Shown: one piece after another, positions 4,894 through 49,053 of the stretch
How the letters are laid out: each line of letters opens with the position of its first letter
Numbering within the stretch: the first letter of the stretch is position 1
Source: Candidatus Methylacidiphilales bacterium
GTDB lineage: Bacteria; Verrucomicrobiota; Verrucomicrobiia; Methylacidiphilales; CAZTYG01
Length of the DNA stretch: 64,000 nt
Assembly: GCA_033875315.1 (NCBI GenBank)
Contig: JANRJG010000003.1
Span: forward strand, 62,001 to 126,000
Direction: 5' to 3'
Program-made: the position numbers and the translations under genes
Notes under the pieces: generated by a model
What the model was told of the DNA's origin: nothing
The model's database searches: none
What the model saw: only the letters and a program-made list of their open reading frames with translations

Positions 4894-6963
4894 GTGTCGG
4901 GTCCTTTTTTGTCTTTGGCGCAAGCATCCAATTTATCCGGCCTTTCTGATGTGAACCATCCGCTCTTCACACACCAGCGCCAGGTCCACCTGGATTTCCA
5001 CACATCGCCCCACATACCCGGTGTGGGCGCGGAATTTGATGCCCGGGCCTTTGCCTCGACGTTCAAGCAGTCGCACGTCAACAGCGTCACGATCTTCGCC
5101 AAGTGCCACCACGGGTTCACCTACTTTCCCTCAAAAGTCTGTCCGGTCCACCCCCAGTTGTCCCCATCCCACCCCGACCTTCTCGGAGAACAAATCGAGG
5201 CCCTGCACCGGGAGGGCATCCGTTGCCCGATCTACCTCACGGTCGGCTGGGATGCCCTTTCGGCACAAATGCATCCCGAATGGCGGGCCCTGTTCCAGAA
5301 CGGCCACTTTGCCGACTGGCCTTCGCCCCAGCCCGGTGGATGGAAATTCCTCAACTGGTTGCATCCGGCCTATCAGCAACATATCGAAGATCTCACCCGC
5401 GAGGTGCTGGAGCGCTACGGGAGCGAAGTGGACGGTTTTTTCTACGACATCTGTTTTTTTCCGAAGGGAGCATGCTGGTCTCCCGAATCACGCGAGTTCC
5501 GGCAGCGATACGGATTGTTGGATGATTCCTCTGCCGGACACGAGCGCTTCCTGGCCAAGGCGCAGGAAGTATTCTCCAAGCGTTACAGCGATCTCATCCG
5601 TGCTGCCCGCCCCGAGGCCACGGTTTTCTTCAATGCCGGTTCCGACAGTTTCCTTGAACCGGGACTCGGTGCCCGGGCGCGCTATGCCCACATGAGCCAC
5701 ATGGAAATCGAGTCCCTGCCATCCGGATTCTGGGGCTACTTCCATTTTCCACGCCTGGCACGCTCCACCGCCCACTGGGGTAAACCATGGTTGGGCATGA
5801 CCGGGCGGTTCCAGACCATGTGGGGGGACTTCGGCGGCATCAAACCCCAGGCCGCACTGGAGTTCGAATGCTTCCGCCCGCAGGCCATGGGGGGGGCGAA
5901 TTCGATCGGGGACCAACTCCATCCCCGCGGCCAGCTTGATATGGCGGCCTACGATCTCATCGGCGCCGTCTACCAACAGGTCGCCGCAGCAGAGCCCTTT
6001 TATCACGGATCGGAACCCTTGATCCAGATCGGCATCGCCACCAGTGGCACCCCGGGACTGGACGCCAACCTGACGGCCCAATCGGACGAAGGGGCCATTC
6101 AAATGTGCGAAGAGGCCCATTACGAATGCCAGTTGCTGGACGCGGAAGATACCCTTCAGGGACTCGATTTGGTCATTTTAGGCGACAGCACCACCCTCAC
6201 TCAAGACTTTGCCAATCGCCTGCGCCAGTATTACGAGAATGGGGGGCATCTCCTCATTTCCCACCAAGGCGGCTGCGCGGCCGACGGACGATGGTTGCTC
6301 GACTTTCTGCCCATACGGATCAAGGGAAAGGCCGAGGCCTATCCGGCCTACTGGCGCGCCAAGCCTGCATTCTCCTCCACGCTCGCCCGCAGCGACCGTG
6401 TTTTTTACCAGCAGGGCCTGGTTGTGGAAGCGGGGGAAGGCACCGATGTGTGGGTCGAGCGCGTGCTTCCCTACTTCCAGCGAGATGATGTCCATTTCTG
6501 CTCCCATCTCCAAACCCCGCCCCGCCCGGAATCCAGCGGGCAACCAGTCGTCGTGGCCAGTCAGAGGTTCGTTTATTTCGCCGATCCGCTTTTCCGGGAA
6601 TACCGCAAAGCGGGAAACACCGCAGCCCGCGATGTCTGGCGACTGGCCGTGCGCCACCTGATCGGATCAGCCCCCTTTGGTGAGGGTCTCCCCAGCACCA
6701 TCCAAGTCTATCCCCGCCGACGCGGCCCGGACCTGATTCTGACACTGCTTCACTACATCCCGCTGCGCAAGGCACTGGACATTGATCTCATCGAGGAGCG
6801 CATGGGCTTTGCCAACGAGCTGCTTTGCCTGCCTCCGGGGGCCAACCGTGTTCAACTGTTTGGCGGAGCTCCTCTGGAGCAAACCGGCCCGAACCAGTGG
6901 AAGTTGCCCGCCGGAATCAAAGGAAGGCTCCTGCTGGAAGTGCCTGGCTTTTTTCAAAGATAG
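4894..6963 (+). CDS. GHL6-type putative glycoside hydrolase (TIM barrel plus trimerisation-like domain)
   Basis: The 689-residue protein has the N-terminal signature of hypothetical glycosyl hydrolase 6 (FHTSPHIPGVG near residue 37, then SVTIFAKCHHGFTYFPSK). A TIM-barrel region follows with DGFFYDICFF near residue 180, where an Asp could be catalytic. From about residue 370 to 600 there is a beta-galactosidase-trimerisation-like Rossmann region (LVILGDSTTL, GGHLLISHQGG). No signal peptide is seen. The only plausible start is GTG at 4894, immediately after the pseudopilin stop codon, so translation is probably coupled. The family resembles fucosidase and galactosidase-type enzymes, but its substrate is not known to me. 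Confidence 0.75.
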   Translation: MSGPFLSLAQASNLSGLSDVNHPLFTHQRQVHLDFHTSPHIPGVGAEFDARAFASTFKQSHVNSVTIFAKCHHGFTYFPSKVCPVHPQLSPSHPDLLGEQIEALHREGIRCPIYLTVGWDALSAQMHPEWRALFQNGHFADWPSPQPGGWKFLNWLHPAYQQHIEDLTREVLERYGSEVDGFFYDICFFPKGACWSPESREFRQRYGLLDDSSAGHERFLAKAQEVFSKRYSDLIRAARPEATVFFNAGSDSFLEPGLGARARYAHMSHMEIESLPSGFWGYFHFPRLARSTAHWGKPWLGMTGRFQTMWGDFGGIKPQAALEFECFRPQAMGGANSIGDQLHPRGQLDMAAYDLIGAVYQQVAAAEPFYHGSEPLIQIGIATSGTPGLDANLTAQSDEGAIQMCEEAHYECQLLDAEDTLQGLDLVILGDSTTLTQDFANRLRQYYENGGHLLISHQGGCAADGRWLLDFLPIRIKGKAEAYPAYWRAKPAFSSTLARSDRVFYQQGLVVEAGEGTDVWVERVLPYFQRDDVHFCSHLQTPPRPESSGQPVVVASQRFVYFADPLFREYRKAGNTAARDVWRLAVRHLIGSAPFGEGLPSTIQVYPRRRGPDLILTLLHYIPLRKALDIDLIEERMGFANELLCLPPGANRVQLFGGAPLEQTGPNQWKLPAGIKGRLLLEVPGFFQR

Positions 6964-41764: not shown

Positions 41765-43858
41765 ATGGCTTTTCCTATGAACGCCTCCGACTTTTACAAC
41801 ACCCAACACAGTCCCATCGGCGCCTTCGCCAGCTTCACCCTCGGCGCCAAGGGCCCCCGCGGCGGCTTCGGACTGGAAATCGGCAAACCCGCCGACGAAC
41901 ACGTGCTCATCGGCTTGGAAAATCGTGAGGACGACAGTTTCTCCTACCTTCCTTTCTGCCAGGAAATCCTGGACGACAGTTCCAATTTCGACCTCGCCAC
42001 CGATCCCCGCCAAAAAGCCTTCCGGATGGACGCCTTTGCCGACGAGGCCATCACCCGGACCCTGACCCCCGCCACCGACACCTGGGTGGCGGGCGACCTG
42101 ACCTTCACCATCCACACCCCGGTCGGCGAGGCCCCCCCACCCTCGGCCCCGCGGGCGGTGCGTGAGCTGGCCTATGCCCCGGCCCTGGCCGTTGAAATCA
42201 CCGTCGACAACCGCCAAGGCCGCAAGCCCCGCCGCTGCTTCTTCGGCTTCCAAAGCAACGACCCCATGCGCCACATGCGCCGCCTCGACGATACCGCCCC
42301 CTTCCCCGGCCTGGCCTGTGGGTTGACCACCGCCATCGCCAGCAACACCCCCGGCGTCTGGTCGGCCCAGGCCTTCACCTGCGAGCAGATCCTGGCCGGG
42401 GCCCACGACTTCAACCGCGGCTGGGGGCTCGGCCGCGTCGGCCTGCTCGTCGGCACCACCCCCGCCGGCAAGACCCGCACCTTCCGCTTCGCCGTCTGCT
42501 TCCACCGCGCGGGCATCGTCACCACCGGCATGCCCGCCAGCTACCACTACTACCGCTTCTTCAAGGACCTCGAGTCCGTGGCCTCCTACGCCCTGAAAAA
42601 CTTCCCGGCCCTGAAGAACCGCGGGGCCGCCTTCAACCGCCGCTTCCTCAAATCCAAGCTTTCGCCCGAACGCAAGTTCATGCTCGCCCAGGCCCTGCAC
42701 AGCTACTACGGCAGCACCCAGTTCCTCGATATCGGCAAGGAAAGCATGTGGATCGTCAACGAGGGCGAATACCGCATGATCAACACCTTCGACCTGACCG
42801 TCGACCAGCTCTTCCTGGAAATGGAATTCCATCCCTGGACGGTGGCCAACGAGCTCGATTGGTTCACCAAGCGCTACGCCTACCGCGACAAGGTCCGCCT
42901 GCCGGGCTCCGAACGGGAATTCCCCGGCGGCCTCAGCTTCGCCCACGACATGGGCATGGCCAACCACTTTTCCGTCCCCGGGCGCTCGGTCTACGAGAAA
43001 GCCGGCCTGCATGGCTGCTTCTCCCACATGACCCACGAGGAATTGGTCAATTGGCTGGTTTGCGGCCTGGTCTACCAACACCACACCGGCGACAAAGCCT
43101 GGACCCGCAAAAATCTCCCCGTTTTCCGCGACTGCCTCGACAGCCTGCTCCGTCGCGACCACCCCGATGCCGCCCGTCGCGACGGTCTCATGTCGGCCGA
43201 CAGTTCGCGCTGCCAGGGCGGGAGTGAAATCACCACCTACGACAGCCTCGACGTCTCCCTCGGCCAGGCCCGCAACAACCTCTACCTCGCGGTCAAGACC
43301 TGGGGTGTTTACACCGGACTGGAGCACTTTTTTGCCCGGCAAAAGGATCCCCGTCGCGCCGCCCTCTGCCGTGAACAGGCCCTCCGCGCCGCCGCCACCC
43401 TCACCGCCTCGGCCGATGCCGACGGCCTGCTGCCCGCCGTCATCAACGAAAACGTCACCAGCCGGATCATCCCGGCCATCGAGGGTCTGGTCATCCCCTG
43501 GTCGCTCGGCCTGAAGGAAGCCCTCGACCCCAAGGGGCCCCACGGCCCGCTCCTGGCCGCCCTCAAGCGCCACCTCCAGGGCGTCCTGCGCCCGGGCCTT
43601 TGCCGGTTCCCCGACGGCGGATGGAAAATCAGTTCGACCAGCGACAACTCCTGGCTCAGCAAGATCTACCTCTGCCAGTTCATCGCCGAAAGCATCCTCG
43701 GCCTCGAACCCGACCGGGAAGCCGACCGGGCCCACGCCGCCTGGCTGCAGGACGCACGCAACCAGTATTGGGCCTGGAGCGACCAGATGGTCGCCGGCGA
43801 AGCCAAGGCGAGCAAATACTACCCGCGCGGCGTCACTTCCATCCTCTGGATGAGCTGA
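41765..43858 (+). CDS. GH52-type beta-xylosidase
   Basis: The 697-residue protein matches GH52 along its length: NTQHSPIGAFASFTLG (12-27), GGFGLEIGKPADEHVLIGLE (33-52), the nucleophile block VNEGEYRM with E335, and the acid block TTYDSLDVSLGQARNN (490-505). It ends with a C-terminal (alpha/alpha) barrel. GH52 enzymes are about 700 residues, retaining, cytoplasmic beta-xylosidases acting on xylo-oligosaccharides. No signal peptide is present, in agreement. The gene is divergent from lacI, the usual position for a regulated target. It is not preceded by a Shine-Dalgarno sequence; an ATG four codons downstream is a possible alternative start. Confidence 0.92.
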   Translation: MAFPMNASDFYNTQHSPIGAFASFTLGAKGPRGGFGLEIGKPADEHVLIGLENREDDSFSYLPFCQEILDDSSNFDLATDPRQKAFRMDAFADEAITRTLTPATDTWVAGDLTFTIHTPVGEAPPPSAPRAVRELAYAPALAVEITVDNRQGRKPRRCFFGFQSNDPMRHMRRLDDTAPFPGLACGLTTAIASNTPGVWSAQAFTCEQILAGAHDFNRGWGLGRVGLLVGTTPAGKTRTFRFAVCFHRAGIVTTGMPASYHYYRFFKDLESVASYALKNFPALKNRGAAFNRRFLKSKLSPERKFMLAQALHSYYGSTQFLDIGKESMWIVNEGEYRMINTFDLTVDQLFLEMEFHPWTVANELDWFTKRYAYRDKVRLPGSEREFPGGLSFAHDMGMANHFSVPGRSVYEKAGLHGCFSHMTHEELVNWLVCGLVYQHHTGDKAWTRKNLPVFRDCLDSLLRRDHPDAARRDGLMSADSSRCQGGSEITTYDSLDVSLGQARNNLYLAVKTWGVYTGLEHFFARQKDPRRAALCREQALRAAATLTASADADGLLPAVINENVTSRIIPAIEGLVIPWSLGLKEALDPKGPHGPLLAALKRHLQGVLRPGLCRFPDGGWKISSTSDNSWLSKIYLCQFIAESILGLEPDREADRAHAAWLQDARNQYWAWSDQMVAGEAKASKYYPRGVTSILWMS

Positions 43859-45609: not shown

Positions 45610-48576
45610 TCAATCAGCCGGAAACTGACGCGCCTTATTTAACCAATCGCAATACTTTCTATCTATTTGCCAGTCGAGAAGTTCAAGGTAATCCACACTG
45701 ACTCTATTTGAAAGCCTTTGCTGTGAAGCTACGGCACGTTCAAAGCGCTGAGGAGAAGTCAACTTCCACTTTAATGCTGCTCGTCGATAAAAGATGTAAG
45801 CTAAATCAGAATTATGCTTCTCAAAAAGCTCCCCAAGCCAAGCCGCAACCCACCCCTGATTGATGAGCACCAACTGGTCTTTTGCCTTTTCGAGGCACCA
45901 AGCAGACTTAATCAAACACGTCTCAGCCCAAGTATTGTCGCCCTTGAAGAATAAACATCGCCCAATATTACCATAAAAAGAACCACCTCGTTCTCTATCA
46001 ATTACAAGTGGATTGATAACATCTTCAAGACTGGTAGCGCCGAGAAAATAAATCAAAGCCTGCTCAACCTCTCCCGAGTCACGTTGCGCCAATGCAAGGT
46101 TGTGCTCACAATCGTGACGGGTATCTAGATTGCCAGCTGTTTTCACTTCAACCCCACGCTTCCCCCATTCTTTTGCAAGCTCAAATTCCCCGCGCGTCCA
46201 ATACATATATGTGCGCATGCCACATGCAGCTACATAACGCGCAGTTGCTCCTGCTACGCCCCGCTCAAATCTAACTATAAATTCCTCAGCATCAGCAAAT
46301 CTACCTAACTGTGTAAGCGCTTCCACCAATTCAATCAATACATCGTCCTGAATCTTCTGATCGGCTCCAGCTGGTAAACTAAGGTCAATGTTGGCATATA
46401 AAGCACTGGCCCATTTTACAAACTCTTCTGCATATCCATTACGGAGTAGAGGCTTCCTAATTTCTTCTAAAGCCAACAAGGCCTTAAGCACTTCTCCACT
46501 ATTGATTAACAACTCTACTTTAGCCGTCCAGTTTTGTAAAACTTCATATGAAACGTCCTGACCCAAAGTAGGGCGGAGCTTCACAATCATCTGATCAAAA
46601 AACAATAGGATCGCAGAAATATAAGGGCTTCGCTCAGACTGTGAAAATTGTCTTCGAACAAATTCTCTCAATAGCGGGTGTAATTCAATAGTATCTGGAG
46701 CACTTGACGGTGTTTTCACAACAACCAGATCTAGTGCAGTTAATTGACGAAGAGCCTTAGTGAACTGATTAGAATTCAACTCCAGTGCAACGCATTGAGC
46801 GATTTCTCTTTCAGTCTCGGGTCGCACCATTTCGGCTAAGTAACGTAAAAGCTTTTGATGCTTCGGTTTCAAAGAACGCCATATCTCTTGGAGCATTGCG
46901 TTTGGAAGTCCAGCATCTTTGCCTGCGCGAATACGTCTAATCAAATCGACGAGTTCAACTCTATTTGTCAGAACCTGCATCGCGATTAGGTTTATCCATA
47001 AAGGGTGCCCTTGAGTTAAATCGTGAACCTCATTTATATGTTTTGGTTCTACGGTAAGACCCCGAGCAGCGAATAACAGTTGAGCTTCAGCAACAGTTAG
47101 GCCATGTAACTCTAATTGCAAAAATGTTGGTTGCTCATAAAGTAACTTTGGTCTACAAGTGAATACGTACTTTGACGTGCCAGCGTTTTTCGCAGCACCC
47201 TCAATTAGTAAATTCATTGCCTCTACTGCTTTTGCGCGATAAACATCTACATATTGATCAATGTTATCAAACACAAACACCGCCCGTAATGATAGGGTAA
47301 TGTTCAAAAAGAGCTTGATTATTGATTCCGTACTTTCCTCTAGAAAGTCTTCTGCTCGACGTTGCCCATTGGTCAGTCGAATAATTATTCGAATTAATTA
47401 CGTATGCAGGGTGTTGCTTTCCTCTTTGCAATCACGCCAATCCCAGAATACTCCTTCTTTCTCAACTTCTGCTAAATATCTAGCTACCAATGTAGATTTG
47501 CCTTGACCTCCGATGCCAGTAACAGCAACAACTTTAGAATCTATACTTCTTAAAAGTCGCAACTCTTCTTCTCGCCCCACCCAATGAGTAGTAGGAGGCG
47601 GGGTGTCTGACGTTCCTTCGAAAGCGTCTGTAGTATTGTTGAGCAAAACTACAGAGGCTTCATTTTCATCATGATCTGACGTAACAATGATTCCATGAGT
47701 ATTTTCAGTAGATTCTTTTCCTAACGTTTGGACTAAACTTTCGAGCCCTGGCCCGTACTCGGCGAATTCGATGAGCTCGATACCAGGTAGTCTTTGTGCT
47801 TTCACAGTTTCTACGCTGCTCGAGTGGACAAGAGCATAATGAGGGCCATTCGCGCCGACAAACATGTCGCTAATTGCTTTAAGTTGAAGACCGAAAGCAT
47901 GATCGTTTAAGCTATATCCAATAAACAAGAAAGAATGAGTTGCTAAAAGTGTACGCAGGGTCTCTTGAGCAGCAGTAAATCTATTTTGTGTAGTTGAGGT
48001 AGGATAGAGACGATCATATCCGTCAGGTGTTAGAATAATATTTGATGCGTCATCTATGCTCCCGTGCAAATGCCAAATCACAGGGCGCTTTAACCCGTCG
48101 CGGATTGCAGCAGCTTGTTCCGCTGGCGCTTCGATATTCCAAAGCCCTACATCATCTTGCTTTGCGCAGGACCAACGAAGTACCCTATCATAATTAGTGG
48201 TTACGATTAAATTGCTTCCAAGTGTCCAAACTGCTCGAGCAAGCGTAAGAGTTTCGTCCGATGCTGCCTCTCGTTGATGATCAAATTGCTCTTTTAAAAA
48301 ATCAAACCACACTGGTCCAAGTCCCTCTTTAGCGCGCTTCGCGGCATCTAGGAAGTCAGGCTTATCAATCGCAAGTAGATTACGTACAACTCCAGCGTAA
48401 GCAGGCTTTTGCTCGCGATCGAGTCTTCCGGCGGCACGTTCTAATAACGTGCGCCAACTAGGGAATAGCGGCTCACTATTGCCAGCTGCTTTCACAGCCA
48501 TCGAAACGCCGGCCCCAATAAATGGCAGAACACGGTTCGAACGCAATCGTTCGACTAGTGTGGCGGGAAGAGTCAC
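45610..48576 (-). pseudogene. SIR2-STAND-TPR antiphage-type protein interrupted by one in-frame TAA
   Basis: The start is probably GTG at 48576 (VTLPATLVERLR); a TTG 96 bp upstream would add a poor extension. The N-terminal SIR2-like NADase domain has FIGAGVS, TTNYDRVLRW, WHLHGS and FIGYSLND, all the usual motifs. A STAND/NB-ARC ATPase follows: WVGREEEL, Walker A VTGIGGQGKST, Walker B VFVFDNID. Then come a winged-helix-like part and TPR-like helices to the C-terminus. A TAA at 47398-47400 (after NTLHT) lies between Walker A and B. Reading through it in the same frame gives LIRIIIRLTNGQRRAED and continues perfectly to Walker B, so one base change (for example CAA to TAA) breaks a 988-codon gene. 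The base composition is visibly AT-richer than the flanks. The family senses phage and depletes NAD. Confidence 0.8.
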
Positions 48577-48852: not shown

Positions 48853-49053
48853 TCACTTGCGTTTATGTCCGGCCAGATAATCTTCCAGGGGACGATAGGC
48901 GAGCCCCTTCTTGCGGGCGCGCTTCAGGTAGGCCACGTCAGCCACATCCTCCGCCCGTTCCAACAGTTCTTTATAATCCTTGATGGGGATGATGACGGAA
49001 ACGGGCTTTCCTTTCCGTGTGACGATTTCGGGTTCGGCCAAAGTCGCTTTCAT
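48853..49053 (-). CDS. Orphan Phd/YefM-type antitoxin, N-terminally short
   Basis: The 66-residue protein (start ATG 49053) contains EIVTRKGKPVSVIIP, the central motif of Phd/YefM antitoxins, followed by DYKELLERAEDVADVAYLKRA, the helix before the toxin-binding tail. Family members normally have about 20 more residues before this motif, forming the DNA-binding part. Here the motif starts at residue 9, so the N-terminus is shortened. No toxin (RelE, ParE or Doc type) follows; downstream DNA to 48680 is repeat-rich and noncoding. Either an orphan or remnant antitoxin is likely. Confidence 0.65.
   Translation of the reverse strand: MKATLAEPEIVTRKGKPVSVIIPIKDYKELLERAEDVADVAYLKRARKKGLAYRPLEDYLAGHKRK

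What the first reader, a model, noticed from the sequence alone, without database searches (positions are those of the whole stretch)
45610..48576. SIR2-STAND-TPR defence gene broken by a single in-frame ochre codon
The SIR2 motifs, Walker A, Walker B and the TPR-like part are all intact and in one frame. Only the TAA at 47398-47400 interrupts it, between Walker A and Walker B. The sequence on both sides is uneroded, so the stop is recent, suppressed, phase-variable or a sequencing error. If read through, it is a complete Avs-like NAD-depleting sensor. If not, the cell makes a SIR2 half without its sensor.
Basis: partly seen in the sequence, partly recalled or inferred. Interest (0 to 1): 0.7.

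Follow-up and report, generated by a model that had tools for sequence, protein, structure and literature searches.

The report
Recently broken SIR2-STAND phage-defence gene
A horizontally acquired bacterial gene for an immune sensor that would destroy NAD on phage attack carries one stop codon in its switch domain; intact relatives elsewhere show that this is most likely an ordinary, recent loss of function.

Summary
On the minus strand, 48576-45610 is one reading frame of 988 sense codons interrupted once, by TAA at 47398-47400 (codon 393), between Walker A (354-361) and Walker B (433-440). The halves belong to one protein: a relative in a Verrucomicrobiaceae MAG is a single 998-aa ORF, 54% identical over 985 residues. 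That copy and 12 more distant homologues carry varied sense codons (His, Gln, Ile, Lys) at the stop column. The stop cuts an NB-ARC/STAND nucleotide-binding domain, so neither half has a complete switch. Alternatives to a plain nonsense mutation found no support: all 44 tRNAs found have sense anticodons, no slippery tract or unusual RNA fold lies at the site, and the break is not conserved. The downstream half is no more eroded than the intact relative's, so the lesion is recent, or a consensus error that only reads can exclude. Intact, it would be a known kind of single-gene defence protein (SIR2 NADase, STAND ATPase, TPR sensor); it is not shown to be Avs5. Two other homologues are independently broken in the effector or P-loop region, which fits loss of costly defence genes. 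Interest is low.

The parts
45610..48576 (-). Interrupted SIR2-NB-ARC(STAND)-TPR gene: 988 sense codons plus one internal TAA
   Evidence: full-length single-ORF relative L002, 54% identity
47401..48576 (-). Upstream open part (392 codons): SIR2 domain plus the start of the nucleotide-binding domain, through Walker A
   Evidence: PF13289 SIR2_2 E 8e-25, AAA_16 E 1.5e-5
47713..48567 (-). SIR2 NADase-like domain, residues about 4-288; catalytic pair N128 and H171 kept
   Evidence: alignment with KomC N107/H146; KomC Z 13.9, SeThsA Z 14.0
47494..47517 (-). Walker A GIGGQGKS, residues 354-361
   Evidence: invariant GIGG-GKS in alignment A1
47398..47400 (-). In-frame TAA (codon 393) within the nucleotide-binding domain
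   Evidence: relatives have sense codons for His, Gln, Ile or Lys in this column
47257..47280 (-). Walker B-like VFVFDNID, residues 433-440
   Evidence: F436, D437, N438, D440 invariant in A1
45613..47397 (-). Downstream open part (595 codons): rest of the STAND core and the C-terminal TPR sensor
   Evidence: AAA_35 E 2.6e-7, weak TPR matches; PH0952 STAND-TPR structure E 3e-4
45613..46626 (-). TPR-like helical repeat sensor, residues about 651-988
   Evidence: predicted helical repeats, mostly pLDDT 75-94; many TPR structures matched at Z 14-21

Best explanation
This is a horizontally acquired, single-gene defence protein of the SIR2-STAND-TPR kind that has recently been inactivated by one nonsense mutation inside its ATPase domain. 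In the intact form (inferred from relatives and solved homologues, not shown here), the TPR array binds a phage product and releases autoinhibition; the NB-ARC/STAND domain exchanges ADP for ATP and oligomerises; the clustered SIR2 domains hydrolyse NAD+ and stop infection. In this genome, translation should end at codon 393, giving SIR2 plus about the first 69 residues of the nucleotide-binding domain. That product lacks Walker B, the rest of the switch and the sensor, so the system should be non-functional. Shown here: one gene, domain order, position of the stop, absence of erosion, unsplit relatives. Inferred: defence role, NAD hydrolysis, loss of function, recency.
For: Unsplit 54% relative spanning both halves. 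The stop column holds varied sense codons in 13 homologues. Pfam scores for AAA_16, AAA_22 and NB-ARC rise when the halves are joined. Relative-rate test: at strongly conserved columns after the stop, this copy deviates 7 times and the intact L002 10 times; among columns where the two differ, each is the less typical one 129 times. Only one lesion, no frameshift. The 44 tRNAs found include no TAA-reading anticodon. No repeat tract at the stop; RNA fold unremarkable, z -0.74. Low-GC islet (about 40-48%) between higher-GC housekeeping genes, and no full-length relative in overlapping sets of 142, 384 and 388 genomes from its order, class and phylum, which fits horizontal gain. SIR2 catalytic residues aligned with KomC; fold matches to PH0952, MalT, Apaf-1, KomC and ThsA.
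Against: No reads were available, so a consensus error or within-population polymorphism cannot be excluded. No close relative exists at species or genus level to date the mutation. Absence of erosion is also what a functional read-through gene would show. The draft genome is about 96% complete, so one tRNA could be missing.
Confidence: 0.72

Rival explanations
1. The stop is an artefact: a consensus error, or a minority or polymorphic variant in the assembly, and the gene is intact in most cells.
For: The sequence is from a 42-contig draft, possibly a MAG. A single-base event with otherwise perfect conservation would look the same.
Against: Single-base substitution errors are uncommon in an assembled consensus (general knowledge); no homopolymer or repeat at the site.
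Confidence: 0.17
2. The stop is read through or suppressed, so that some full-length protein is made as a dose-limited sensor.
For: Downstream half uneroded; NAD-depleting effectors are costly when misregulated (general knowledge).
Against: The 44 tRNAs found include no TAA-reading anticodon. No unusual RNA structure near the stop. No relative has a stop there.
Confidence: 0.04
3. Phase-variable or programmed on/off switching at the stop.
For: A 14-bp palindrome lies just downstream (47378-47391).
Against: No frame change or tract-length change is involved. No slippery or direct repeats or invertible arms at the site; relatives show no such mechanism.
Confidence: 0.02
4. The halves act as two separate polypeptides: a SIR2 protein and a restarted STAND-TPR protein.
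For: A TTG at 47307 could start a 565-aa ORF.
Against: The restart would lack Walker A and begins inside the nucleotide-binding domain. No clear Shine-Dalgarno sequence upstream. Intact homologues are fused.
Confidence: 0.02

Closest known systems
Intact relative in Verrucomicrobiaceae MAG C1_MAG_00076 (JAIXPW010000217.1; L002)
   Same: Same SIR2-NB-ARC-TPR order, 54% identity over 985 residues, same catalytic and Walker motifs
   Different: Single uninterrupted 998-aa ORF; function also untested
PH0952 (PDB 6mfv), STAND ATPase with a TPR sensor (PMC6468293), and MalT
   Same: STAND core followed by a TPR-type sensor; best Foldseek E-value
   Different: PH0952 and MalT are not SIR2 defence proteins; identity only about 15%
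Avs5 (AVAST type 5, SIR2-STAND; PMC12931631, PDB 9jap, 9nc9)
   Same: SIR2 effector, STAND ATPase and C-terminal repeat sensor; among the top Foldseek rows
   Different: Avs5 has nSTAND3 (PF20720), for which this copy gave no match; no Avs model among the PADLOC hits; whole-chain TM-score only about 0.2
KomC, ThsA, DSR2 and FAM118B SIR2 domains
   Same: Homologous SIR2-like domain with the conserved Asn and His
   Different: The parts outside the SIR2 domain showed no sequence match to this protein
Disrupted homologues in Jiella pelagia (L011) and Rhizobium phaseoli pRphaN161c (L036)
   Same: Same STAND-TPR core family, also broken in the effector or P-loop region
   Different: Broken by a transposase insertion plus a frameshift, and by a frameshift; a distinct SIR2 subtype

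Membership tests
SIR2-NB-ARC(STAND)-TPR single-gene proteins | SIR2-type domain with catalytic Asn and His | tested here: met
   PF13289 E 8e-25; N128/H171 aligned to KomC N107/H146
SIR2-NB-ARC(STAND)-TPR single-gene proteins | STAND nucleotide-binding core with Walker A and B | tested here: met
   Motifs invariant in 11 sequences; Apaf-1, MalT and NRC1 folds matched over residues 320-725. NB-ARC score slightly below the Pfam cut-off in this copy (21.5 vs 23.5), above it in L002
SIR2-NB-ARC(STAND)-TPR single-gene proteins | TPR-type sensor | tested here: met
   Helical repeats and TPR folds; Pfam TPR models above cut-off in L002, below it here
SIR2-NB-ARC(STAND)-TPR single-gene proteins | One continuous coding sequence | tested here: not met
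   TAA at codon 393: a broken copy, not a working member
SIR2-NB-ARC(STAND)-TPR single-gene proteins | Anti-phage activity and NAD+ depletion | not testable with these tools
   Needs experiment
Avs5 (AVAST type 5) | nSTAND3 (PF20720) NTPase | tested here: inconclusive
   No match at E up to 0.1 in this copy; weak matches below cut-off in homologues L003, L004 and L035
Avs5 (AVAST type 5) | Avs5-type SIR2-STAND-repeat fold | tested here: inconclusive
   Foldseek ranks EfAvs5 second (E 1.4e-9) but TM about 0.2 and rmsd 31

The most novel reading that the evidence does not exclude
Proteins of this SIR2-STAND-TPR family are repeatedly switched off by disabling mutations in the effector or P-loop half while the sensor half stays intact, meaning that carriers commonly hold them as silenced alleles because the active form is costly.
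Probability: 0.08. Interest if true: 0.45.

Novelty: new member of a known kind. Interest (0 to 1): 0.2.

Why it matters
As a single case it matters little: defence genes are gained and lost often. It documents a STAND-TPR lineage whose related core is joined to SIR2 or TIR effectors across several phyla, and one recent loss. If such losses proved unusually frequent, they would measure the fitness cost of NAD-depleting immunity in nature.

Tried and rejected
Conserved split at the stop: rejected, since 13 homologues have sense codons in that column. Suppressor tRNA: none among 44 tRNAs. Phase variation: no tract or repeat at the site. Recoding by RNA structure: z -0.74. Second copy in the genome: none. 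Viral origin: no relative in phage records or viral contigs. Closer relatives to date the stop: none in overlapping sets of 142, 384 and 388 genomes of its order, class and phylum. Larger census of broken homologues: searches of 397 genomes in the order of L004 and 300 in the order of L008 added only two full-length intact homologues. Of 17 full-length or near full-length homologues, 3 are broken, this one included. The sample is small and mixed and no background rate was measured, so no claim is made.

Full report
What is there. On the minus strand, a frame runs from GTG 48576 to the stop at 45610-45612: 988 sense codons with a single internal stop, TAA at 47398-47400, codon 393. The gene is present once in a 3.15 Mb, 42-contig draft genome about 96% complete. 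It sits in a low-GC islet (about 40-48% GC against roughly 57-70% on either side) between a Mur-ligase-like gene and a DNA topoisomerase/dprA pair, which points to horizontal acquisition.

Are the halves one protein? Yes. The closest relative found, in a Verrucomicrobiaceae MAG (L002), is one uninterrupted 998-aa ORF, 54% identical over 985 residues and crossing the stop without a gap. More distant homologues (about 31-37% over the STAND-TPR core) from Alphaproteobacteria, Bacteroidota and Acidobacteriota are mostly fused too. In 13 aligned homologues the stop column is a sense codon of varied identity: His, Gln, Ile, Lys. The column is thus tolerant, and the split is not conserved. Joining the halves raises the scores for AAA_16, AAA_22 and NB-ARC.

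What it would be if whole. Residues about 4-288 are a SIR2_2-type domain (E 8e-25) that keeps the catalytic Asn and His, aligned here with N107 and H146 of the KomC NADase. Residues 320-725 match the nucleotide-binding core of Apaf-1, MalT and plant NRC proteins. The rest is a TPR-like array. The model is of moderate confidence (mean pLDDT 69.6; SIR2 part weakest), so single-domain matches are trusted more than whole-chain ones. The best Foldseek match is PH0952, a STAND with a TPR sensor (PMC6468293). The core is combined with other effectors: a more distant SIR2-like domain in most homologues and, in L009, a TIR domain.

How it most likely works. By analogy with Avs5 (PMC12931631) and the STAND switch (PMC6468293): the TPR array senses a phage product, the STAND core opens and oligomerises, and the SIR2 domain hydrolyses NAD+. 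None of these steps is shown here. In this copy, translation should stop about 69 codons into the nucleotide-binding domain, after Walker A and before Walker B, so no working switch or sensor is expected.

How old is the break? At conserved columns after the stop, this copy deviates 7 times and the intact L002 10 times. Among all differing columns, each is the less typical one 129 times. There is no other lesion. The stop is therefore recent relative to the divergence from L002, or is not real. Reads are needed to decide; none were available.

Alternatives. The 44 tRNAs found include none that reads TAA (one could be missing from a 96% genome). There is no repeat tract and no unusual RNA fold. 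A restart at TTG 47307 would lack Walker A and has no clear ribosome-binding site. A consensus error or polymorphism is the only serious rival.

Wider pattern. Two other homologues are broken. In Jiella pelagia (L011) a transposase gene interrupts the SIR2 part and a frameshift lies at Walker A. In Rhizobium phaseoli pRphaN161c (L036) a frameshift separates the SIR2 part from the STAND part, which are annotated as two genes. Three of 17 is suggestive, but the sample is small and no background rate was measured.

Verdict. Observation confirmed; interpretation partly supported. It is an ordinary, recently disabled copy of a known kind of defence gene, and it is not shown to be Avs5.

Noticed in passing
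window 48853-49053 (-): Small Phd/YefM-type antitoxin ORF (66 aa, PF02604 E 2e-7) between the SIR2 gene and the topoisomerase gene, with no obvious toxin ORF beside it.
   Followed up: partly
window 47378-47391: Perfect 14-bp palindrome CGAATAATTATTCG just downstream of the stop; probably chance in AT-rich coding sequence.
   Followed up: partly
L011 2523-6970: Jiella pelagia homologue interrupted by a transposase gene resembling the IS256/Mutator type (type recalled, not tested) and by a frameshift at Walker A.
   Followed up: yes
L036 4958-8013: Rhizobium phaseoli plasmid homologue annotated as separate 'SIR2 family protein' and 'ATP-binding protein' genes; it looks like one gene with a frameshift near 5818-5827.
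   Followed up: yes
L009 4506-7064: Hymenobacter homologue carries a TIR domain in place of SIR2 on the same STAND-TPR core, so effectors are swapped.
   Followed up: partly
window 41765-43858 (+): Glycosyl hydrolase family 52 gene (PF03512 E 1.8e-148).
   Followed up: no
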